Source of the DNA: Romanomermis culicivorax
Taxonomy: Eukaryota > Nematoda > Enoplea > Mermithida > Mermithidae
Assembly: GCA_963922205.1 (NCBI GenBank)
Contig: CAWUHX010000170.1
Span: 372,001-436,000 of the forward strand
DNA: 64,000 bases
Direction: 5' to 3'
Below, one piece after another: positions 23,940-37,495 of this stretch; the first letter of the stretch is position 1; each line of letters opens with the position of its first letter. The notes under the pieces were generated by a model. That model saw nothing but the letters and a program-made list of their open reading frames with translations, had not been told where the DNA came from and did no database searches. A program made the translations under genes and the position numbers.

Positions 23940-23943
23940 GGAT

Positions 23944-24731
23944 TGTCGTATATGCGGTCCTATGCCCTCGGCTACCTAGCTGCGGTTCTCGGGAGATCCA
24001 ATCTGGTACGGCCCCTGACGCTAACCCGGTACTAGATACAATCCTACTGCAGGTCACAGAAACTTGAGGAACAAAGATATTTATTTTGCAACTGACAAAA
24101 GTGTAAATACAACTGTGAGCAAGTGATAAATGGGATACAAAATGTCAAAGTATGAACATGACGCTGATTTCCTCCCTAAGTCGCTGACCCTTCTTTCTGT
24201 CCCTGTGCACAGAGCCCCAGGGATTTCCGGGTATCTTAATCCACGACCTAAGCTGAAAGCTTGTCCAAAGACAAAACAGTCTACCTAACTCCTGAACAAC
24301 CACTCACTAATCTCCTTGATCAAGACTGAACGTCGAGAATCTCCTTAGGCCGTGTGAGTCCTCACGATAGATCCCCGACACGCGGGCTAAAACGCACACT
24401 AATCAAAACGGCGAATGTGACCTCGATCCTTCCTCAGTCACCGCGAGTCTTCTCCGAAGACACAATAATAAAAACGGCTGGACGATAATAATAAACGAAT
24501 TAAGAATGAAAAAACGTACTGCAACGCGTCTAACATCGACTTGCCAGTTGCATGCAAAACATTCGCGTCACCATTTATGTATTTTTTGAACCAAAAATGT
24601 ATGTGACACAAACCGTTTTACCGGTTTGCTTACCTAAGAATAAATGAAATCACTTTAACAACAAAGGAACTTTAGAAAATGAAAGTGAGGTAATTAGAGG
24701 ACCAAAGGTCAGAGGAATTGACCCTCTGACA
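23944..24731 (-). repeat. 3' LTR (element sense)
   Basis: 788 bp with TG/CA ends, same length as its partner. By eye the differences are single substitutions, most of them transitions. Confidence 0.93.
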
Positions 24732-24743
24732 TCCCTCCCCCCC
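24732..24743 (-). other. Polypurine tract
   Basis: The minus strand reads GGGGGGGAGGGA directly before the 3' LTR, the expected plus-strand priming site. Confidence 0.85.
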
Positions 24744-25898: not shown

Positions 25899-26945
25899 TT
25901 ACTTTTGTCTATGACCACTGTGGTCCCGCCCAGGCTGACCGATACCTTGTTCTCTTTTCAACGGCGATATATAATCGGGGTTCCCTGTCGACGGCGGTCC
26001 TTGCGGCGGTTGCATTCCCATTGACGTCCCTGGAATTTCCATCCTTTCTTCACCTTGTACATTACGTATCGGCGGAATTACTGTGGGTGGTGGCATTTGA
26101 AGGCCGGGCGGAACCAAGAATTGGTGATAATATTGCGGTTGCCCCGGCTGGAATTGCAAAACCGGAAATTGCGATACTTGAAATTGCTGTGGCGGAGGTA
26201 TCATTGTATTGGGCAATACTTGGCCTGAAAAGAGAGGGCGATTCATACAGTCAACTCCTACCATGGGCAATCCCGGATAATTCGGCGGCATGTACGGTAA
26301 TTGCTGCTGCTGCGCTATCATCATTGCATTCCGGTCGGCCATCAATACTCCTTGTTGACTCGCTTCATTGGCTCTAGGCCTATTCAGTGAAGCCGTTCGA
26401 CTGGAGTAGGACACGTCCAATCGATCATCGTGTTGATAATATCCCGGTGTCCTCTTTCGGCTACTAGATTTTCGGTTCCCTTTCCTTTCTTCCATTTCTC
26501 TTTTCTCTTTCTCCTTTCGCTCGAACTTTTCTTCGTATTCTTCAATTTCTTTGCGCCAGCTCTCTTCTTCATTTTCTCTTCGTCTTTTCTCTTTCGACAT
26601 CGATTTTTCATGGCGACTTTCGTCCCGGTGCCGACTTTCGTATCTCCTTTTCCTTTCCTTCTCTGGCATCGCCGATTTTTCTCTTTTCCGCTCATCACCA
26701 TCTTTCCTAGTCCAATGTTTGGATACCTTACCTGCCGCAGGCCTGCTGTAGGGGTGCTTGACTCGGTACCCGATTTTCTTTTTTAATCTTTTCTCGACTT
26801 CCAACAGATCATGAGCCTTCTTCCTATCGATAACTTCCCAAAAACGTATCCGGGGATCCGTATTATCAGTTTCTTTCTTCCAAACTTGAATATTCGTATA
26901 TTTTGGTTCCGGGTCTCTTTTATCCTGCAGGACAGCTTTTAGCAA
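25899..26945 (-). CDS. 348-aa charged and proline/glutamine-rich accessory ORF
   Basis: Residues about 1-70 look globular (RIRFWEVIDRKKAHDLLEVE). Residues about 75-165 are dominated by Lys, Arg and Glu, an extended charged helix. The second half is rich in Pro, Gln and Met (PQQFQVSQFPVLQFQPGQPQ), likely disordered. It overlaps the 769-aa ORF by 26 bp in a different frame. A nucleic-acid-binding or condensing role would be a guess. Confidence 0.6.
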   Translation of the reverse strand: MLKAVLQDKRDPEPKYTNIQVWKKETDNTDPRIRFWEVIDRKKAHDLLEVEKRLKKKIGYRVKHPYSRPAAGKVSKHWTRKDGDERKREKSAMPEKERKRRYESRHRDESRHEKSMSKEKRRRENEEESWRKEIEEYEEKFERKEKEKREMEERKGNRKSSSRKRTPGYYQHDDRLDVSYSSRTASLNRPRANEASQQGVLMADRNAMMIAQQQQLPYMPPNYPGLPMVGVDCMNRPLFSGQVLPNTMIPPPQQFQVSQFPVLQFQPGQPQYYHQFLVPPGLQMPPPTVIPPIRNVQGEERMEIPGTSMGMQPPQGPPSTGNPDYISPLKREQGIGQPGRDHSGHRQK

Positions 26946-29229
26946 TTGTATACGCTAACCCTGACGCCTTAGACTGGCAAGAGGCGTATAATGTATGAAA
27001 ATTACTACCTGCTCCTTCTTGTCTGGCATTGAATTCGCGGCGCAGTTTCATGGTAACGTAAGCATGAGCCTGATAGTGGAATCCGGCGAAATTCTGTGGA
27101 ATCCTGCCCAACCGCAACAATTTCATGAATAAACAGGCGCAAGCCCATACCCCGGCTTCATACGCTTTCCCCGGGGGCCGAGTTGTAGCCCATTCTGTCC
27201 ATTGATGTTCGAAAATGTTCCATAATTTTTCAGGTAAATTCGCCTGCAATACGTGAAATTGCAGTTCATAGTAACGTATTGTTTCTATTTCGACTCCCCC
27301 TTCATCGTAGATACGATTTATCAAGTCCGTGGTCATAAGAGCTACCTCTTCATCCAAAGCAGGATCCATGTGCGCGAGATATTTCTGAACACACGGATTT
27401 GACAGAGATACTCTACCATATTGGAAATCTACAACGTATTTTCCCTCTTTCAAAGCTTTTTTCAAGACTTGCCCACGTTTCCCGAGGCCTCGTCGATACT
27501 TGATTTTGTCATTTGGGTTTCCTGGCGGTTGTTGGAACTTTCCGGTTTTCACTTTGTCCAATTCAGCTTTGTTCTCCTCTTTCGCTATTCGCTTCTCTTT
27601 CTCTTGCCTTTTGTTGTACATTACTCTCGCAAACTTTCCAGGGTTGGTTATATTTTCTACACTCTGCCCACCAGCCTTGGCATATACCGGCGGTGCGGGC
27701 AAAACATTATTTTCGGGAGTTTCGTCCTCACTCCCCATTTCGGAAACGACTTCTACATATGGTTCTTCGCTTGTCTCTTCTTCTTCAGCGTTGACATTTT
27801 CCAATTGCTTTGCTAGCTCAATCGCAGCCTTTCCATATTTCTCTTTTTCTAACGTTTCTATCTTTTCTTTCATCTCTTTTATCTGCTCGGTCAGCTTTTC
27901 CACATCGGGTTGTATTTCGCTTTCGGGCTCGACTATTTCCATCAGTTTTTCTTCCTCTACGACATTTTTACTATCGTTAGCAGGTATATTGGCAATAGGG
28001 GGATCCGCGATGATCACTTCCACGGGCTTTTCCTGTTCCATTTCGGTACCTGAAACATTCAAATTATCGATTTTAGAGGGTACATTTTCTGTCTGTTCCT
28101 TCGAAGTTCTTTCCGTAGGACCCTGGCTAGCCGGGACCACAACTTCTACTTGAGGAAACAGATCCGAGTCGTCCCACTTAGTTACAGATTTGAAAGTTGT
28201 AGAAGTGCTAGGGACCCATAGGTCCTTAGCCTCGAATATAGACGCGGAAACATTCCAATAAATGAGATTTTTGCTAGCCGCGTGAACATGCAAAAAATGA
28301 AACACATTATAAAAGTTATGATTCAAAAAATAAATAGAATTTTCGCGTAAATCTGTTTCTATTTCTTCTTCGGGTTCTTTTAAGGAACGCGGTATCCATT
28401 TTATAGGTAGTACGCAGAAAATATTTTGGACCGACTTCTGCGTGCGTACTTTCGGATATCGTTCCATCATTTGTTCTGCTTGTTCGGTCATTTTGTTATT
28501 CACAAGATCTTGGCCCATCCATTTCATAAATTCGATTCGCTCTTGTTCGTTTCTCCATACGGAGGACCACATACCCGACGTAAACCCTGGCACCCAAGAT
28601 CTCCATTCTTGCGCCGAATGAGGCCACAAGAAATAAATGAGGGGATTTATGTTCTTCTCATACAACTCCTTGACCACAGGGACAATCGATCGATTGATTT
28701 TCGGATGGTAATAGTCCCTAAGCGACGATACCTGTTCCCGTATATTATTCGTAAAGTGAATCACTTTGCTAGGCCACTTTCCTTGCTTCATTTCCATCTC
28801 TCTTGGCTCTATTGGTCGTCCGAATTGCCGCGCAGCTAGTATATCTTCTAAATCCCAATCGTTGGTGGGCCCTTCTTCCGATTCTTCCGTATCTTTCCTT
28901 TTCCATGATGCTTTTACCTTTCTTTCTACCCACGGGTACCAACCACGGGGTACTGGTTGCAGGTCGATGTCGCTATTTGAGAAATGCGGAGGGCAATAGA
29001 AATTTCCAGATGCTTGCTCTTCCGATAATTTATAAGTTGCGATTGCCTCCCCACGCATCATGAAATATAACGCATTAATATTACCCTTCATTTCCTCTAC
29101 TCCGTATGCACCCTTCCACTGCGGGTCCGTAGATTTATCCTCGAACGTTTCTCGAAATCTTCGAGCTAAATCAGCAACCAGCTCTGGTTCCATTGTATCG
29201 TGAGGGTATAACTTGAAACAGTTTTGCAC
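26920..29229 (-). CDS. 769-aa accessory ORF of unknown function
   Basis: It starts with ATG 18 bp after the exonuclease stop. Residues about 1-300 are a Trp-rich globular region (WVPGFTSGMWSSVW, FMKWMGQDL). Residues about 350-480 are Pro/Glu-rich and low in complexity, including a predicted coiled coil (KLTEQIKEMKEKIETLEKEK). Residues about 520-590 are basic. Residues about 600-745 form a second helical, Trp-containing region (IFEHQWTEWATTRPPGKAY). No catalytic motif, signal peptide or membrane helix is visible. The end overlaps the next ORF by 26 bp in another frame, so the two may be one broken or frameshift-linked protein. I do not recognise it. Confidence 0.7.
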   Translation of the reverse strand: MQNCFKLYPHDTMEPELVADLARRFRETFEDKSTDPQWKGAYGVEEMKGNINALYFMMRGEAIATYKLSEEQASGNFYCPPHFSNSDIDLQPVPRGWYPWVERKVKASWKRKDTEESEEGPTNDWDLEDILAARQFGRPIEPREMEMKQGKWPSKVIHFTNNIREQVSSLRDYYHPKINRSIVPVVKELYEKNINPLIYFLWPHSAQEWRSWVPGFTSGMWSSVWRNEQERIEFMKWMGQDLVNNKMTEQAEQMMERYPKVRTQKSVQNIFCVLPIKWIPRSLKEPEEEIETDLRENSIYFLNHNFYNVFHFLHVHAASKNLIYWNVSASIFEAKDLWVPSTSTTFKSVTKWDDSDLFPQVEVVVPASQGPTERTSKEQTENVPSKIDNLNVSGTEMEQEKPVEVIIADPPIANIPANDSKNVVEEEKLMEIVEPESEIQPDVEKLTEQIKEMKEKIETLEKEKYGKAAIELAKQLENVNAEEEETSEEPYVEVVSEMGSEDETPENNVLPAPPVYAKAGGQSVENITNPGKFARVMYNKRQEKEKRIAKEENKAELDKVKTGKFQQPPGNPNDKIKYRRGLGKRGQVLKKALKEGKYVVDFQYGRVSLSNPCVQKYLAHMDPALDEEVALMTTDLINRIYDEGGVEIETIRYYELQFHVLQANLPEKLWNIFEHQWTEWATTRPPGKAYEAGVWACACLFMKLLRLGRIPQNFAGFHYQAHAYVTMKLRREFNARQEGAGSNFHTLYASCQSKASGLAYTIAKSCPAG

Positions 29230-29247
29230 ATCAATAGCGAACCCGTA

Positions 29248-29985
29248 TCATAGCAACGCCAAGAAACATAGAAGGGACCCGCGCGCGTCGAGCGTCGCGT
29301 ATCGCAAAACTTCTATGTTTAATTTGTCCGCTTCCATTAACTGCCGAAATTCTAGAGAGCTCAATTGGCCCCACGAAATTTTAAAAGCATCAGCCCACAA
29401 AAATAGAATTTCCGTCATAAGGGCCTTTAAGTTCAGGGCTTCCGGACTAATTCCTATCATTCTTGTCTTTGCTTTATCCTTCATCTCGGCCAATACGATT
29501 TCCAGATCATAGACACAGCACGACAAGATGTAATCGATATTGTCACGCTTTTTTCGGGCTAGCTCTCTTTCTTGATCTAAATATCCGAATCTAGTCAAGA
29601 CTAGCGTGATGTCTTCGCGAATGTGAAAACTGACGATGATATTCTCTTCGCAAAAAATTGTGTTATATATCTTATGAAAATGTTCTTTGTCCCAAAACTT
29701 TAAATCTACTATAAAGTTCTTCCCACACATAGTCGAAATCGTCAAGAGCCTCAAGGCGTCGCTGGGTTTCGAACCCGACGTTTTGGGTTTCCTTCCACTT
29801 TCGGTATCTAGCGCGATGACTATTCGTCCTCTGAATTTCTATTGGTTTATTGCCTTATTAAAAGCTTTAATATTTTCGGGCACGAGGAACAAAGGTTCTT
29901 CGACGGCCGTATGGGGCCCACCGAACAACGACGTGAAATAATTAAAAATGTCTGTTGACCGCACCAATCTTCGCACGTTATAATC
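29248..29985 (-). CDS. RNase D-like DEDDy 3'-5' exonuclease encoded by the LTR element
   Basis: The uninterrupted part is 29,838-29,248 (196 codons). In the same frame upstream, about 50 more codons are open, separated by a TAG (29,841-29,839). The three exonuclease motifs are present in order: ExoI IVIALDTES (29,82x-29,799) with D-x-E; ExoII SFHIREDITLVL with the catalytic Asp; ExoIII LRYATLDARGSL with the Tyr-x3-Asp signature. The pattern and spacing are those of RNase D/WRN-type nucleases. It lies in the place of an env or third ORF. Capture of DEDDy exonucleases by LTR elements has been reported, as I recall, in bdelloid rotifers; here the role (RNA or DNA end trimming) is unknown. Confidence 0.8.
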
Positions 29986-30668
29986 TTAAAATTTTCACAT
30001 AATTTTTTACCTATTCTTTTTTGGTACTAACTTCGAAATAAAAATGACTCAAATGCTCAAGAATAAATTTGGACATAGGCGAGTTGATCAGTCTCTCAAA
30101 TACCCAAAATCCTTGGCATATAAATTGCCGTGCGGTCAATTTAGAGTCCCATTCCGAATAAAAATTTCTACCACATATTTTACCCTTTCACACTTACTAC
30201 TGATTTGGAAATTGGTATTGTCTTGGCGGTCTTGCGGCTGCCCGAAACTATTGTCTACTTCTACGAAATTGGACGTGGCCATATCGCGTTCGAACTTGGA
30301 CTTCAAAAATCCTCCAGTCGACGAAAATAATTAATATAGTAATATTTTGCAAATGAAATCTAAAAAATAGCTCCATAACGCCTTCGATTTTATGGGATCT
30401 GTAACTCGGGGAGGGTTTTCTCGGGACTTATAAACATTTTGACTTCTTCACACTGAGCACGTGAAAAAATATAATTTTGCCCATTAAAAAATTTTCCGGC
30501 GTCGTAGTTTTTGATAACTGCCTAAAACTGCCATAAAATTGCCAAAAATAAGTTAGAACGATAAAAAATTTGAAGGGAAAAATGGGAAAGGTATAATACA
30601 GGGAACATTAAAAAAGGACACATAAAACAAAATTTGAACACAACACACAAATAAAACGATAAAATGAA
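29986..30668 (-). other. Spacer between pol and extra ORFs
   Basis: About 680 bp with no good frame in either direction. In many LTR elements with a third ORF such a spacer carries a splice acceptor for a subgenomic mRNA; I see pyrimidine-rich stretches but no site I can single out. Confidence 0.4.
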
Positions 30669-33131
30669 TTATGAACTACAGTAAAAATCGGGTGTCCGCA
30701 TAACAAAAGGCATTACGCGATTTATGGAGACTATTTGTACACTCGAATCTGGTTTCCCAGCGCGGAGTATGTTTATGACATTTTTATCTAAATTCTGTGT
30801 TTCAATTACTTCATAGGGACTGTCATTTGTAGTGTCGGCTTTCCCTTTTATAATTCCTTTCTGATAGAGGACAAGTTCACCCGTTTGGAACGTCTTTTCG
30901 CGAGCCTTCCTATCATACTGTAATTTTCTTTCGGCCGCTGCTTTTTTATGATTTTCGTTTATAATTTTGTACGTGTTAAGGAGGTGTTCCGTTAACATGT
31001 ATTTATACATCTGGTAATTGTTCTGGACAATTATTGGCCTTGCGATATCATCATCTATCTGAAACATTGCCTCATGTCCATACAATAGACTATGGGGGGA
31101 ACTTTTCGTAGTTTTGTGTGGCGTAATCCGATACACAAATAAAATCTGCTCCAGATAATGGGGCCAGTCATCCGGGTCGGTAATTGCCACTCTCCTAATC
31201 TGCTCAATTAGCGTCCTATTGAATCTTTCCACCATACCATTACATTGCGGGTGGTATGGTGTCGTATTTGTTTTCTTTATTTTCAGGAGATCGCACACAT
31301 CGCGCATTAGTTCGGACATATAGGCTGAGCCCTGGTCGCTCAGCAAGTGTTTTGGCATCCCGTGGGTATAAATTACTTTTTCCATGAACGCCTTTACTAT
31401 AGTATCGGCTTTTTGGTCGGGAATACATTTGTCCTCCACCCATTTTGTGAAATAATCCATAAATACGATAACATATGGCCTCTTTTCTCGTAAGGGCGAA
31501 ATACTAACCACATCGGTAGCTACTATTTCCCAAGGGTAGGAAACAGGTATGGGGTTGAGTGGTTTAATTGGGTTTGCTATTGGAGGACATAATTGGCATA
31601 CGACGCAGGATTTTATCCATTTAATAATGTCGTCTTCCATATTTGACCACCAAAATTTATTCCCAATTGCGGCAATAATTCTATCTACCCCTTGATGGCC
31701 CATTAATGTATCGCCATGGTATTGATGCAAAACAAGGTGCCTAAGCTTGGAGGGAATTACTAACTGATTTCTTCCATGGATATTTTCTCGGTATAATACT
31801 TCGTTTTCCAAGTGAAAACTGTTGAAGTATTTTTTTGAGCTGTTTTCACCGATATTCCGGAAAATATCCACCAACTTCGAGTCTAATCGCTGTTGTTTCT
31901 TGATCAATTCCAGAGAGAATAAATCGGACTCCTTTTTTGCTTCCTCTGGTGTTTGATCTATTTCTTTTTGCATTGGTGGTGGAGGGTCAATAAATGTTTC
32001 TTGTGTCTCTGGTTCAAGCATCTGTCTTGTCATGGCTCTTGTTACCGCCATGCATTCGGGTTCCGTATCCACATTTTTGTCCTCGATTTCTTCGTTACTT
32101 TCTCGCTTCTTGTTTCGGATCTTTTCTTTCTCCTCGGATCTTGATAAAAAATCTGCAAAGGCATTTTCGCGTCCGGCTACATATTCGAATGTATAGTTAA
32201 ACTGTCCAAGATATAAAGCCCATTTCAATAACCTTTGATTTTGTTGTTTTTCTGCGGAGAGCCACGTAAGTGGTTTATGGTCTGTTCTGATTGTGACCCT
32301 AAACCCCATAACGTAATGTCGGTATTGCTTGAATCCGTAGACTACGGCTAAACACTCTCTTTCCGTTGTGGAATATCTTGTTTCGGCGTTGTTTAAAACT
32401 CTACTCGAATAGGCTATCGTCCAGCGATCGTTTTCCGTTTCCTGGTATAAAATCGCACCTATCGCTGTCCCTGACGCATAAGTTTGAATTACAAATTTCG
32501 CCGATCCATCAAATACTGGGTATCCCAGAAAGGGTGCCGTCATTAGGGCGTTTTTTATACCTTTAAAAGCTGCTAACTGTTCTTCCGAAAGCTCGAACTT
32601 CTCCTTCCTATTCTTTTTTACGAGGGCTTTAAATAAAGGCTGTGCGATGAAAGCTAAGTTATGTATGAACCGTTTGGACCATTGTACTAATCCCAAAAAT
32701 TTTTGTAGCTGCTTGATGGACTTGGGTACTTCAAAATTTTTTACCGCTTCTATCTTCTGGGGATCAACTGACATTCCATTTTTATCCAATATGTGGCCTA
32801 AAAATTTTACGCTAGCTGGCATAGAGGAGCATTTGTCAGGTTTCAATGTAAGATTTGCGTTTGTCAGACATCGAAAAATAGTCTCTATATTTTCTAAATG
32901 CTCCTCGACCATTTTTGAAAAAATTATCACATCGTCGATATATACTAAACATATTTTCCACACATAGGGATAAAGAATTCGCTCCATGAGACGCTGAAAT
33001 TCTGCGGGAGCATTTTTAAGCCCAAATGGCATTACTTTAAACTGGAAAAGACCGTCTTGGCATATAAATGCTGTCTTTTCCTTCGATTCTGAATGCATTG
33101 GTACCTGCCAGTACCCGGACTTTAAATCCAA
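30669..33131 (-). CDS. Reverse transcriptase, RNase H and integrase
   Basis: An 820-codon frame. RT palm: YIDD at residues 64-67 with FGLKNAPAEFQRLM before it. RNase H: residues about 210-332; the first catalytic Asp of the usual TDAS is Tyr (TYAS), while TTEREC, RTDHKPL and AFADFLSR are kept. Integrase: zinc knuckle H473, H480, C510, C513; catalytic D541, D600 and E636, giving DD35E spacing. The C-terminus has a YEV...INR-type SH3-like end and no chromodomain. The start at 33,131 is only where the frame reopens after upstream stops. The RNase H change suggests a defective copy. Confidence 0.92.
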   Translation of the reverse strand: MDLKSGYWQVPMHSESKEKTAFICQDGLFQFKVMPFGLKNAPAEFQRLMERILYPYVWKICLVYIDDVIIFSKMVEEHLENIETIFRCLTNANLTLKPDKCSSMPASVKFLGHILDKNGMSVDPQKIEAVKNFEVPKSIKQLQKFLGLVQWSKRFIHNLAFIAQPLFKALVKKNRKEKFELSEEQLAAFKGIKNALMTAPFLGYPVFDGSAKFVIQTYASGTAIGAILYQETENDRWTIAYSSRVLNNAETRYSTTERECLAVVYGFKQYRHYVMGFRVTIRTDHKPLTWLSAEKQQNQRLLKWALYLGQFNYTFEYVAGRENAFADFLSRSEEKEKIRNKKRESNEEIEDKNVDTEPECMAVTRAMTRQMLEPETQETFIDPPPPMQKEIDQTPEEAKKESDLFSLELIKKQQRLDSKLVDIFRNIGENSSKKYFNSFHLENEVLYRENIHGRNQLVIPSKLRHLVLHQYHGDTLMGHQGVDRIIAAIGNKFWWSNMEDDIIKWIKSCVVCQLCPPIANPIKPLNPIPVSYPWEIVATDVVSISPLREKRPYVIVFMDYFTKWVEDKCIPDQKADTIVKAFMEKVIYTHGMPKHLLSDQGSAYMSELMRDVCDLLKIKKTNTTPYHPQCNGMVERFNRTLIEQIRRVAITDPDDWPHYLEQILFVYRITPHKTTKSSPHSLLYGHEAMFQIDDDIARPIIVQNNYQMYKYMLTEHLLNTYKIINENHKKAAAERKLQYDRKAREKTFQTGELVLYQKGIIKGKADTTNDSPYEVIETQNLDKNVINILRAGKPDSSVQIVSINRVMPFVMRTPDFYCSS

Positions 33132-33341
33132 AGTCGAAAAATAGCGTGCACCTCCTAACGCATCTAAGTAATCGTCAATTCATGGTATCGGGAATTTATC
33201 GTCTTTCCTTACTTGGTTAATCCCTCTGTAGTCAACTACTGGTCTCCAAGTGCCATCTTTCTTGCCCACTAAAAACAATGGTGCGGCCCAAGGGCTTCTA
33301 GAGGGCTCAATGACCCCTTTTTCCATCATATCCTTCACATG
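33132..33341 (-). pseudogene. RT N-terminal segment between two stops
   Basis: In the frame of both neighbours this stretch encodes the RT fingers/palm start (SPWAAPLFLVGKKDGTWRP and FSTLDLKSGYWQ). A TGA at 33,182-33,180 sits where Arg (CGA) is usual in the FPIPRID motif. Together with the TAG at 33,342 it splits the polyprotein. Confidence 0.75.
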
Positions 33342-34034
33342 CTAACGGATAATATCTCTTTGCATTATAGGGGCTCTCCAGTAGTGCTTCTGGACTGGCA
33401 ACGCATCTCCTGTGTCGATTCTATGTACTGCCTCATGAGTCATCATCAGAGGGTCGTTTTTCATACTAAATGCGTGCCTATGTTTAAGTAGAACGTTCAT
33501 AAGCTGTTGTTGCCCTTGTCGATCAATACTTGATTCTTTCACTAACTGCGTTATGATTTTGATAAATTCTGGTTCGCTCAGCTGTTGGATTTGCGGTTCT
33601 GACTGAAGTTGATGTATCTTTTCCTCAAATTCTGGCCCCACGAATTTCGTTTTGGATTTTGCTATTAGCTCGTTGCTACGCAATTTTATCCCCTTGTTGG
33701 TTTTGTTTATTAGTAGAATTCGAAAATTATTATCTCTGGCGTCCACAATTGAGGCGTCGACATCGAACAAAGTATTCTTCCCCGTTTCTTCTACCACTAT
33801 GGGACCCTTTGTCCAATCTTTCTGTGGCCAAACCACAGCTTGTACAAAGGAAGTGGTATTCGGGGGAATATATGTCCCATTTTTTGTCCAAATAAAAGTT
33901 TCCTCATTCATTTCGGTAATTCGCATTACTTGTTCTTGATCATCGTCACTTTCTAACTCAGGCAAATCTTCTTCCTTAATTTCCTCCTTTATGGGTACAT
34001 AATCCAAAACCATCGGATTTGTAGGAATTGGCAA
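33342..34034 (-). pseudogene. Pol segment between protease and reverse transcriptase
   Basis: This frame continues the polyprotein from the protease tail (its open frame extends upstream to about 34,155, covering SLDFLTHPS) through an acidic linker to the region before the RT fingers. It ends at TAG (33,344-33,342), where CAG or CAA would be expected. Reading past it, the same frame continues into RT (PSRSPWAAPLFLVGKKDG). Confidence 0.75.
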
Positions 34035-34208
34035 CTGCGACGGTATTTGTGCATCGTCGAATAACGTTTCACTAATTATCTGTCTTTCTACATTCGCTAG
34101 GCATATGTGGCCTTTTCGAAAATCAATAGACGCCTGTATACTAGGATGGGTTAGAAAATCTAGAGACCCAATATAATACCTTCATTCAGGTTATCTAGCA
34201 ATGTGAAT

Positions 34209-36521
34209 CTAGCGAGGAAATTTCCAAAACCAGTTCCAACGTCGTTTTCCAACCGCTGTTACTACTGAATTCAAAATAGGAAATTTTGTCTTTGATATAT
34301 TCAGTAATCTCGACGCTGTATCTGTCCTCATAAAGCTAGATTGCGCTCCCGTATCGATTAGAGCTTTGAATTCTTCTCCACATATTTTGACGGGTATTAA
34401 TAATGGTTGACATTTACAAAAATTTTCCAAAAATAAATGTTCGTTATCATTGGCGAGTCTAGGTTTTGCTTCCGAAGTAGAGTTGATAACATTCGCCAAA
34501 CTTAACTCATAATTTTCTATAAGAACTCCATCTAAGGCTATAATTTCTGGTTTATCTTGTTTTTTAGCCTCTTGTGAATTTATGACATTTATGGAATTAT
34601 TCGGAGGATTATTGATCGGTTGCGATGTTGTTGACGGTGCGATATTCGGCGGTGGTTGCGGGACACTATTTTGACGATAATAATATGCCGCATTTGAATT
34701 TTGTTCCATATTATTATGATATGGCATCCGTTGACCAAAATTCGCAAAACCAGCTCGTCCACGATTCACGAAGCCACCACGATGGTCGAAATTTCGATTA
34801 TAAAAATTGTTACCGCGATTCCACGGCCTTCCCTGATCCGTTGGTTGAATCAATTCCGGGTGAAGAATAAAACAATTTTCGGATGAGTGGCTATTGGACT
34901 TATGGTATGAACAATACGGTCGACGATATGGATTTCCCAAAACTCGATCAGGTAAATTATTATATTGAACATTATTAGAATTATTATTGACTCCCCAACG
35001 ATTAAGAGCTGAAGGGCCCTGATTCCTGATTGCATCATTGACCATCTTCATAATATCTTGTTGAGATACGGGGTTTTGAAATGCTGGTGGCGGTGGAAAA
35101 ATTTGCTGAGGCCTTGTAATTTGTTGTTGTTGACCTATACTGCTATCTTGCTGACGAATCTGCAAATTATTAAATCTTCTATTTTCATAGACTTGATTCA
35201 GCCGATCATCTTCGCCATCTTCTTGTTCTTCGCTGAATTCCTTCCAGGCCGTCGTATCAGCTTTCAATTTATTTACGAATTCTGCCAAGGAGGCGATATT
35301 TTTGAATTCATGGAGCCGACCCTCCATTCGAGTTTGGACGTATACTGGAGCCTTGTGAAAATATGTTTCGATAACAATTCGATTTCTTTCGTTTTCTGTT
35401 TTTTCGTAGTTCAATAAATGCACATAAGTCTTTATTCGTCGCAAAAAATCCTTTGTAGTTTCCCCTTTTCGTTTTTTCATATCATGTAGTTCCCTTCTAA
35501 GTGCAGGAGTATCCATTTTGGGGGCGATCATTCTGATTACGCTTGCTTTTCCTTCTTCATAGCTGCCATTCTTGTCTACATAAGTCGACGTTTCAAAATC
35601 GCAGCAACGCCAGAGTACTTCAATTCTTAGGTCTTCTGTGTCTTCAGGCTTGAATGTGCCTTCCAAACAGGCGAAAAAATTGAGTATTTCTGCAGCCTCC
35701 ATTTTATCAGATATTTCTTTATTTTTTATTTGGCTTAAAATTATCTTCATTCTTTTTTCAGGATCTTCACAATATCTTCCATACTCTTGCCGATTTCGAG
35801 GACTGCCTCCAGATATGGGTTGTTCTCTTCCTTGATTCCATGACGTGGTTGGTATCTCTTCTTCCATCATTTGATGTTGGGCACCTTGAGCCTGTGCCTG
35901 AGCCACGTGGTTTTCAAACCAATTCAATTTTCTTTCCAAACTCCTGTCTAAATGGTCTTTGACCGGTTCAGACGGAAGTATTTCCATATCTCCAGGATTC
36001 GATATTCTTTCATCAGGTCTTTTGTCCATTTTCTTCATCAATTTCCGCATTTGTTTCTCAACTTCTTCCATTATCTTTCTTGAGTTTTGTTGTTCTTGTT
36101 CCCGAAATTTTTCTTCCCATAACTTGCATTCCGCTCTTTCTCGCATGAGTTGATCCAGTATTTCTTGTTCTCGTAACGCCGCCTTCGTTCTTTCTACATT
36201 AACGGCATTAGTCGATTTGTCAACGGCTCTTTGCATGGATTCCAGGATGGCTAAAGTGGCCACATCCTGTATATTTCCACTCGTTATCCTTTCCATTTCG
36301 TTCTTCGGTTTCGCTTCAATGTCGACCTTCGCGTCACTTTTCGGTATTGTAGGCGTATATCTTGAGTTATAAAATGATACCGCATTCGTTTCGGGGGGGC
36401 AAACTAATTTTCTCAAAAGATGATACTGAATCAGAGGACATCTGTATCCGGTGATCCGCATAATCATATGTTTCCGCATCAATAGTTTGGTCTTTATCAC
36501 TGTCCTCGGGTAAATTCGCAA
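34209..36521 (-). CDS. Retrotransposon Gag and aspartic protease
   Basis: A 770-codon frame. Residues about 90-190 are a charged coiled-coil-like segment. Residues about 280-445 match a retrotransposon capsid (Ty3-type gag) domain, with [19 protein letters not shown] at its centre. A Gln/Asn/Pro-rich linker follows. Near residues 535-550 a nucleocapsid-like knuckle has an unusual pattern ([14 protein letters not shown], with His in place of the second Cys of a CCHC). Near residue 719 the protease active site reads [11 protein letters not shown]. The frame breaks shortly after, before the protease C-terminal half; the rest (SLDFLTHPS) is in another frame just downstream. Confidence 0.85.
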
Positions 36522-36672
36522 ATTTCTTTGCTACTTGCTCTATGGTTGCCTCCATATTTGCCATTCGTTCGGCGTGATCTTCTTTATTTACTTCAGTTTG
36601 TAATAATGTTACCTTTGGTCGTCTTGCAGGTTGTTTCCGCACCGTTAATTTCGGTTTCGATACTTTCTTCAT
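36367..36672 (-). pseudogene. Gag N-terminus, frameshifted from the main gag frame
   Basis: This frame starts with ATG just after the primer site (MKKVSKPKLTVRKQ, basic) and is then acidic. Its end overlaps the start of the long gag frame. The two frames meet at a run of seven C on the coding strand (about 36,391-36,398), where a one-base length change would account for the shift. The true gag start is therefore probably here rather than at 36,521. Confidence 0.6.
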
Positions 36673-36682
36673 CCTTCACCTT

Positions 36683-36702
36683 GGTAGCTGTACAAGTCAC
36701 CA
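36683..36702 (-). other. Candidate primer-binding site
   Basis: One base inside the 5' LTR the minus strand reads TGGTGACTTGTACAGCTACC. It starts with TGG, as expected for pairing to a tRNA 3' CCA end. I cannot name the tRNA. Confidence 0.5.
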
Positions 36703-36703
36703 A

Positions 36704-37491
36704 TGTCGTATATGCGGTCCTATGCCCTCGGCTACCTAGCTGCGGTTCTCGGGAGATCCAATCTGGTACGGCCCCTGACGCTAACCCGGTACTAGATACA
36801 ATCCTACTGCAGGTCACAGAAACTTGAGGAACAAAGATATTTATTTTGGAACTGACAAAAGTGTAAATACAACTGTGAGCAAGTGATAAACGGGATACAA
36901 AATGTCAAAGTATGAACACGACGCTGATTTCCTCCCTAAGTCGCTGACCCTTCTTTCTGTCCCTGTGCACAGAGCCCCAGGGATTTCCGGGTATCTTAAT
37001 CCACGACCTAAGCTGAAAGCTTGTCCAAAGACAAAACAGTCTACCTAACTCCTGAACAACCACTCACTAATCTCCTTGATCAAGACTGAACGTCGAGAAT
37101 CTCCTTAGGCCGTGTGAGTCCTCACGATAGATCCGCGACACGCGGGCTAAAATGCACACTAATCAAAACGGCGAATGTGACCTCGATCCTTCCTCAGTCA
37201 CCGCGAGTCTTCTCCGAAGACACAATAATAAAAACGGCCGGACGATAATAATAAACGAATTAAGAATGAAAAAACGTACTGCAACGTGTCTAACATCGAC
37301 TTGCCAGTTGCATGCAAAACATTCGCGTCACCATTTATGTATTTTTTGAACCAAAAATGTATGTGACACAAACCGTTTTACCGGCTTGCTTACCTAAGAA
37401 TAAATGAAATCACTTTAACAACAAAGGAACTTTAGAAAATGAAAGTGAGGTAATTAGAGGACCAAAGGTAAGAGGAATTGACCCTCTGACA
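36704..37491 (-). repeat. 5' LTR (element sense)
   Basis: 788 bp, beginning TG and ending CA on both strands. It is near-identical to 23,944-24,731. As the upstream LTR in element sense it should carry the promoter; its outer edge lies 541 bp upstream of the pore-domain gene but it transcribes the other way. Confidence 0.93.
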
Positions 37492-37495
37492 GGAT

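What the first reader, a model, noticed from the sequence alone, without database searches (positions are those of the whole stretch)
29248..29985. RNase D-like exonuclease captured by a Ty3/gypsy LTR element
Downstream of integrase, where env would sit, the element encodes ExoI (D-x-E), ExoII and ExoIII (Y-x3-D) motifs of a DEDDy 3'-5' exonuclease. LTR elements seldom carry such an enzyme; I recall a precedent in bdelloid rotifers, which would make this a second lineage or an independent capture. A nuclease could trim ends, counter small-RNA silencing, or process cDNA.
Basis: partly seen in the sequence, partly recalled or inferred. Interest (0 to 1): 0.85.

Follow-up and report, generated by a model that had tools for sequence, protein, structure and literature searches.

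The report
Exonuclease gene inside nematode retrotransposons
A family of jumping genes in a mosquito-parasitic roundworm carries, where a retrovirus would keep its envelope gene, a long-conserved RNA/DNA-trimming enzyme domain of a kind known from the jumping genes of bdelloid rotifers.

Summary
The window is Romanomermis culicivorax (mermithid nematode). The frame 29838-29251(-) lies between integrase and the 3' LTR of a 13.5-kb Ty3/gypsy element (788-bp LTRs, 98.9% identical, 4-bp target duplication) and encodes D-x-E, D and Y-x3-D motifs. Pfam misses it (PF01612 below cut-off), but profile-profile comparison with 51 bacterial DEDDy sequences is clear (32.6; 500 shuffles: mean 13.6, maximum 22.9). 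It is the N-terminal domain of a spliced ORF3 of about 1,390 residues. Of 1,551 candidate places the best 150 were scored; 47 have a frame of 1,350 residues or more without a stop in the match. Of 87 gapless copies, 78 keep all five catalytic residues; dN/dS is about 0.05, lower than in the next part of ORF3 or the pol C-terminus. The window's own copy is broken. A second repeat family ('B') in this genome has a clear PF01612 domain (80 matches, all over cut-off; the 30 read are all B, 26 with integrase-like sequence upstream). The rotifer precedent is real, so this is a new variant of a known kind: a second animal phylum, two families, and evidence of purifying selection that the rotifer study did not find. 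Substrate and function are inferred.

The parts
36704..37491 (-). 5' LTR of the element (788 bp, TG..CA)
   Evidence: 98.9% identical to the other LTR, 9 mismatches in 788, no gaps
23944..24731 (-). 3' LTR of the element
37492..37495 (.). target-site duplication GGAT (right copy)
   Evidence: flanks printed; LTR edges
23940..23943 (.). target-site duplication GGAT (left copy)
   Evidence: flanks printed; LTR edges
36684..36703 (-). putative primer-binding site directly after the 5' LTR (primer tRNA not identified)
   Evidence: sequence; by position only
24732..24743 (-). polypurine tract before the 3' LTR
   Evidence: G-run
34212..36530 (-). gag and start of aspartyl protease (open stretch)
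   Evidence: PF13650 E=2.5e-05; gag by position
33345..34181 (-). pol stretch, same frame, interrupted on both sides in this copy
30672..33179 (-). RT (part), RNase H, integrase
   Evidence: Pfam; best PDB match Ty3 Gag-Pol, E=6.2e-93
30198..30282 (-). ORF3 exon 1 (ATG, 28 codons and one base)
   Evidence: ATG, GT donor and AG acceptor present in 17 of 17 sequences aligned (window and 16 other loci; the rearranged L014 left out); the junction residues match gene models such as P0009, P0025 and P0028
29985..30197 (-). ORF3 intron, 213 nt, kept in all 17 sequences compared
29839..29984 (-). ORF3 exon 2 upstream of the exo core, ending in an in-frame stop in this copy
29251..29838 (-). DEDDy exonuclease core (196 aa; D11, E13, D76, Y180, D184)
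26923..29247 (-). continuation of ORF3 in the same frame after a stop (775 aa, no Pfam match)
   Evidence: other copies are open across this point
25902..26954 (-). C-terminal part of ORF3, in another frame in this copy (charged K/R/E/S-rich)

Best explanation
SHOWN: the element belongs to a Ty3/gypsy LTR retrotransposon family of R. culicivorax whose third ORF, with its own ATG and one intron by sequence and gene models, begins with a DEDDy-type 3'-5' exonuclease domain. Most copies compared keep all five catalytic residues, and the domain has been under strong purifying selection, so it does something for the element. INFERRED: it is a working, metal-dependent 3'-5' exonuclease, made from spliced RNA, as env is in retroviruses, while unspliced RNA is copied; this would explain why the intron survives in all 17 sequences compared. 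Most likely it acts on RNA 3' ends (about 0.6 in all): processing the element's own transcripts or cDNA ends (about 0.35) or destroying or trimming host small RNAs aimed at it (about 0.3); other uses share the rest. The charged tail of ORF3 would tether it to nucleic acid or to the particle. The confidence given is for the identity and for selected function, not for the substrate.
Confidence: 0.82

Rival explanations
1. A catalytically silent DEDDy-fold RNA-binding domain (as recalled for Egalitarian, Maelstrom, EXD1) that chaperones or localises element RNA.
Against: Each catalytic residue is kept in 84-86 of 87 copies and in 25-27 of 27 copies of family B; silent members of the fold have usually lost some of them (recalled).
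Confidence: 0.12
2. The exonuclease is specifically a silencing suppressor that destroys or trims host small RNAs directed at the element.
For: DEDD-family nucleases act in small-RNA pathways and as viral immune suppressors (PMC7968707, start of abstract in a search listing; mut-7 discussed in PMC5408684). The host lacks piRNAs and 5'-triphosphate small RNAs (PMC4323106 passages), so other small RNAs would have to do any RNA-based silencing (inference).
Against: No small-RNA data were examined; the domain would serve RNA or cDNA end processing equally well.
Confidence: 0.3
3. An env-like membrane protein with coincidental motifs.
For: Post-integrase position and spliced expression, like env.
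Against: No hydrophobic stretch of transmembrane strength in one 1,361-aa frame (maximum KD19 1.29, 0 windows over 1.6); shuffle and decoy controls.
Confidence: 0.02
4. A host RNase D-like gene picked up by one insertion, or lying beside the element by chance.
For: DEDDy genes are common in cells.
Against: Same order in 17 of 18 loci, inside the LTRs here, at least 150 places in the genome.
Confidence: 0.01

Closest known systems
DEDDy ORF3 of bdelloid rotifer LTR retrotransposons Juno and Vesta (Rodriguez et al. 2017, PMC5408684)
   Same: DEDDy exonuclease in the third ORF, after pol, of LTR retrotransposons of an invertebrate; acquired at least twice there; ORF3s said to be expressed from spliced messages.
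   Different: Nematode host; exo is the N-terminal domain of an ORF3 of about 1,390 residues (length of the rotifer ORF not seen in the parts read); no dUTPase found by Pfam (a mark of Juno and Vesta); purifying selection is evident here between diverged copies, whereas that study reports intragenomic ORF3 variation among close copies as mostly neutral (its table concerns env and GDSL ORFs, so the two tests are not the same); it reports DEDD changed to DEED, not the rule here. Sequence kinship could not be tested.
DEDDy ORFs of rotifer Athena/Terminon retroelements (PMC6431247, PMC5408684)
   Same: Same enzyme class carried by retroelements.
   Different: Penelope-like, not LTR elements.
Family B of the same genome (found here)
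   Same: DEDDy ORF just downstream of integrase-like sequence in a repeated element.
Cellular DEDDy exonucleases EXD2, Rrp6, RNase D, Pol I exo
   Same: Catalytic residues and, with low confidence, the fold.
   Different: Below the Pfam cut-off; fused to a long ORF3; part of a mobile element.

Membership tests
DEDDy 3'-5' exonuclease superfamily | Catalytic D-x-E, D and Y-x3-D in order | tested here: met
   Window frame and 84-86 of 87 gapless copies per residue; all five in 78 of 87
DEDDy 3'-5' exonuclease superfamily | Profile similarity to known members beyond chance, motifs in register | tested here: met
   hhalign 32.6, 0 of 500 shuffles, 11 decoys at most 17.1; ExoI and ExoII in the confident alignment, ExoIII only in the extended one
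DEDDy 3'-5' exonuclease superfamily | RNase H-like fold with DEDDy topology | tested here: inconclusive
DEDDy 3'-5' exonuclease superfamily | Metal-dependent 3'-5' exonuclease activity | not testable with these tools
   Needs an assay
Pfam PF01612 (by curated score) | Score over 23.6 bits | tested here: not met
   None of the 21 members of A1; best 15.6 bits. Family B meets it
Ty3/gypsy LTR retrotransposon | LTRs with TG..CA, target duplication, polypurine tract, primer site | tested here: met
   (primer site by position only; primer tRNA not identified)
Ty3/gypsy LTR retrotransposon | Order PR-RT-RH-IN, RT closest to Ty3 | tested here: met
   (closest among solved structures); pol interrupted in this copy
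Rotifer Juno/Vesta lineage | dUTPase between protease and RT | tested here: not met
   No dUTPase in the Pfam scan of the frames; the frames are interrupted there
Rotifer Juno/Vesta lineage | Exo grouping with the rotifer DEDDy ORFs in a tree | not testable with these tools
env-carrying retrovirus-like element | Transmembrane segment in ORF3 | tested here: not met
   Maximum KD19 1.29 in one long-frame copy

The most novel reading that the evidence does not exclude
Post-integrase DEDDy exonucleases are a recurrent, selected module of animal retroelements: in this piRNA-less nematode at least two integrase-bearing repeat families carry very different ones after integrase, and a recently multiplied family-B form keeps its exonuclease ORF open although no reverse transcriptase was found in the two copies whose pol was read. 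The enzyme would then act on the element's RNA or on the small RNAs that silence it, a counter-silencing weapon rather than a copying tool.
Probability: 0.2. Interest if true: 0.85.

Novelty: new variant of a known kind. Interest (0 to 1): 0.62.

Why it matters
The rotifer report left open whether an exonuclease ORF helps the element that carries it and found no departure from neutrality in the ORF3 variation it examined. Here an animal family with at least 150 places in the genome, in eight clusters among the 88 sequences compared, differs at 23-59% of third codon positions between clusters while the exonuclease protein barely changes, so the ORF has been needed. Two unlike exonucleases in one genome make acquisition, exchange and function testable in a host with a reduced small-RNA repertoire. 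It also shows that a Pfam scan misses this domain.

Tried and rejected
Chance motifs: rejected. Host gene or single capture: rejected. env: rejected. Direct HMM proof: failed for family A, as did PDB sequence searches; a first hhalign with shallow profiles gave nothing significant for A against B (16.3) or against E. coli RNase D (16.4). First AF2 model poor (52.6), second better but low (58.6). Foldseek not significant. Relatives outside R. culicivorax: none in three protein searches (3, 20 and 39 hits, overlapping, all R. culicivorax), but these need shared 5-residue words and a similar length. Oomycete elements, cited by PMC6338049 beside rotifers for a DnaQ-like exonuclease (passages): the cited paper (PMC5348765) has 0 occurrences of 'exonuclease' or 'DnaQ'. 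Rfam: no match in the element at gathering scores. No tRNA in the window to identify the primer. Not done: LTR search for family B, tree with rotifer and host exonucleases, RNA evidence, family A places beyond those scored.

Full report
Where it is. The window is G000:C170:372001-436000 of an assembly of 359,112,060 bases in 595 contigs. This equals the published R. culicivorax v2 assembly (359.1 Mb, 595 scaffolds; PMC10879605, passages), and all protein relatives found are named R. culicivorax. The host is a mermithid nematode that parasitises mosquito larvae.

The element. On the minus strand, LTRs of 788 bp at 36704-37491 and 23944-24731 are 98.9% identical (9 mismatches), begin TG and end CA, and are flanked by GGAT on both sides; a G-rich polypurine tract precedes the 3' LTR. 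[quoted passage not shown] In this copy pol and ORF3 are interrupted.

ORF3. After integrase comes an ATG at 30282, 85 nt of exon, a GTAAGT donor, a 213-nt intron and an exon starting at 29984. ATG, GT and AG are present in 17 of 17 sequences aligned: the window and 16 other loci; L002 is the window itself and was dropped, as was L014, which is rearranged. The junction residues agree with database gene models. In 47 of 150 scored matches the frame holding exo is 1,350 aa or longer without a stop in the match (counted); with exon 1 this makes about 1,390 residues. In the one long frame read, the exo domain sits near the N-terminus, followed by about 1,100 residues without a Pfam match, including a charged K/R/E/S-rich stretch; no window reaches transmembrane hydropathy.

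Is it kept? A search of the genome found 1,551 candidates and scored 150; all 150 matched at E below 1e-114; 16 of them carry a stop inside the match. I fetched exo stretches of 96 places, 76 from that list and 20 from a search with a more distant relative; these are among the best-scoring places, so decayed ones are under-represented. 87 were gapless over the domain and 9 partial ones were left out of the counts; of the 87, 9 have a stop. ExoI D 85, ExoI E 85, ExoII D 86, Y 86 and ExoIII D 84 of 87; all five in 78 of 87, and in 70 of the 78 without a stop. The mean column is 94.7% conserved, so this close set alone does not single out the catalytic residues. Selection is shown by the codons: mean distances at positions 1, 2 and 3 are 0.093, 0.035 and 0.319 over 88 sequences, which fall into eight clusters at a 12% cut-off. 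Pairwise dN/dS falls from 0.19 (dS below 0.05) to 0.04 (dS 0.5-2) over the 2,210 of 3,828 pairs that fell in those bins, the rest having higher or saturated dS; a neutral simulation gave 0.90 (0.49-1.70). Over 17-18 loci, dN/dS is 0.048 for exo (86 of 153 pairs unsaturated), 0.095 for the next 499 residues of ORF3 (143 of 151) and 0.088 for the last 136 residues of pol (136 of 136); pooled pN/pS, with no pair left out for saturation, is 0.072, 0.169 and 0.116. The order pol end - exo - ORF3 is the same in 17 of 18 loci, the window's own (L002) included; L014 lacks the pol piece.

A second family. PF01612 itself, searched in the same genome, gave 80 matches, all over the cut-off; by eye none is one of the 150 listed family-A places. 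All 30 fetched belong to one other repeat family, B (77.6-100% identical to one member over the exo part aligned), with sequence similar to family A's integrase just upstream in 26 of 30 (23-33% identity), although Pfam was silent on the one such frame scanned (L030). B's catalytic residues are D 27, E 25, D 27, Y 27 and D 27 of the 27 loci covering them, with codon distances 0.113/0.053/0.313. In 12 of 80 matches the exo frame is 608-610 aa (one with a stop in the match); the 10 of these fetched are 97.9-100% identical over exo, so this form multiplied recently. Of the two copies whose upstream stretch I read, L092 shows zinc knuckle, RNase H and the integrase zinc domain in Pfam but no RT, and in both tblastn with family A's pol matched only from RNase H to integrase; RT further upstream is not excluded. 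A and B exo profiles do not match each other significantly (16.3), so one shared acquisition is not shown.

Precedent. PMC5408684 (parts 1, 2, 3 and 5 of 5 read) describes DEDDy ORF3s in Juno and Vesta LTR elements and Athena elements of bdelloid rotifers, acquired at least twice by LTR elements, with no departure from neutrality in the ORF3 variation examined and function open. PMC6431247 and PMC5718144 (passages) repeat the rotifer case, the former adding Terminons. I found no report of such an ORF in nematode elements in the listings of searches of the open-access library; of these, 30, 38 and 93 listed only 20 of 36, 20 of 35 and 15 of 19 papers, and subscription papers are not in it.

How it works. 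Survival of the intron in all 17 sequences compared, together with a separate ATG, suggests that the RNA copied into DNA is unspliced and that ORF3 is made from spliced RNA, as retroviruses make env (inference). Selection on the domain and retention of the five residues argue for an active enzyme. DEDDy enzymes shorten 3' ends of RNA or single-stranded DNA, so the candidate substrates are the element's RNA or cDNA ends and host small RNAs. R. culicivorax lacks Piwi and piRNAs, and no 5'-triphosphate small RNAs were found in it (PMC4323106, passages), so any small-RNA silencing would have to use other classes. I lean slightly to end processing over counter-silencing; nothing here decides it.

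Noticed in passing
L022-L051 (own genome): A second repeat family (B) with a strong PF01612 exonuclease ORF: 80 PF01612 matches in the genome, all over cut-off; the 30 read are all B, with integrase-like sequence upstream in 26 of 30.
   Followed up: partly
L092, L093: Family B copies in which RNase H and integrase parts but no RT were found in the stretch read, while the exo ORF (608-610 aa) stays open in recent copies; perhaps mobilised in trans.
   Followed up: partly
window 29985-30668 (intron and pol-ORF3 spacer): Non-coding spacer (mean distance 0.128) and intron (0.088; centre 30111-30026 about 0.05) are more conserved between 17 copies than third codon positions of the flanking genes (0.21-0.33): possible cis-acting RNA element. 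No Rfam match.
   Followed up: partly
G000:C158:182213, 187991, 193769: Three partial PF01612 matches exactly 5,778 bases apart: a tandem array or repeated assembly unit.
   Followed up: no
UniProt R. culicivorax proteins P0001-P0042: Dozens of predicted host 'proteins' are pieces of these transposons, one joining integrase to exo (P0036) and two named 3'-5' exonuclease proteins: the public gene set contains transposon fragments.
   Followed up: partly
L010, L011 (G000:C125:568171-569079): A more diverged family-A relative (source of P0016, 61-70% identical to the other listed places over the exo part), useful for dating the acquisition.
   Followed up: no
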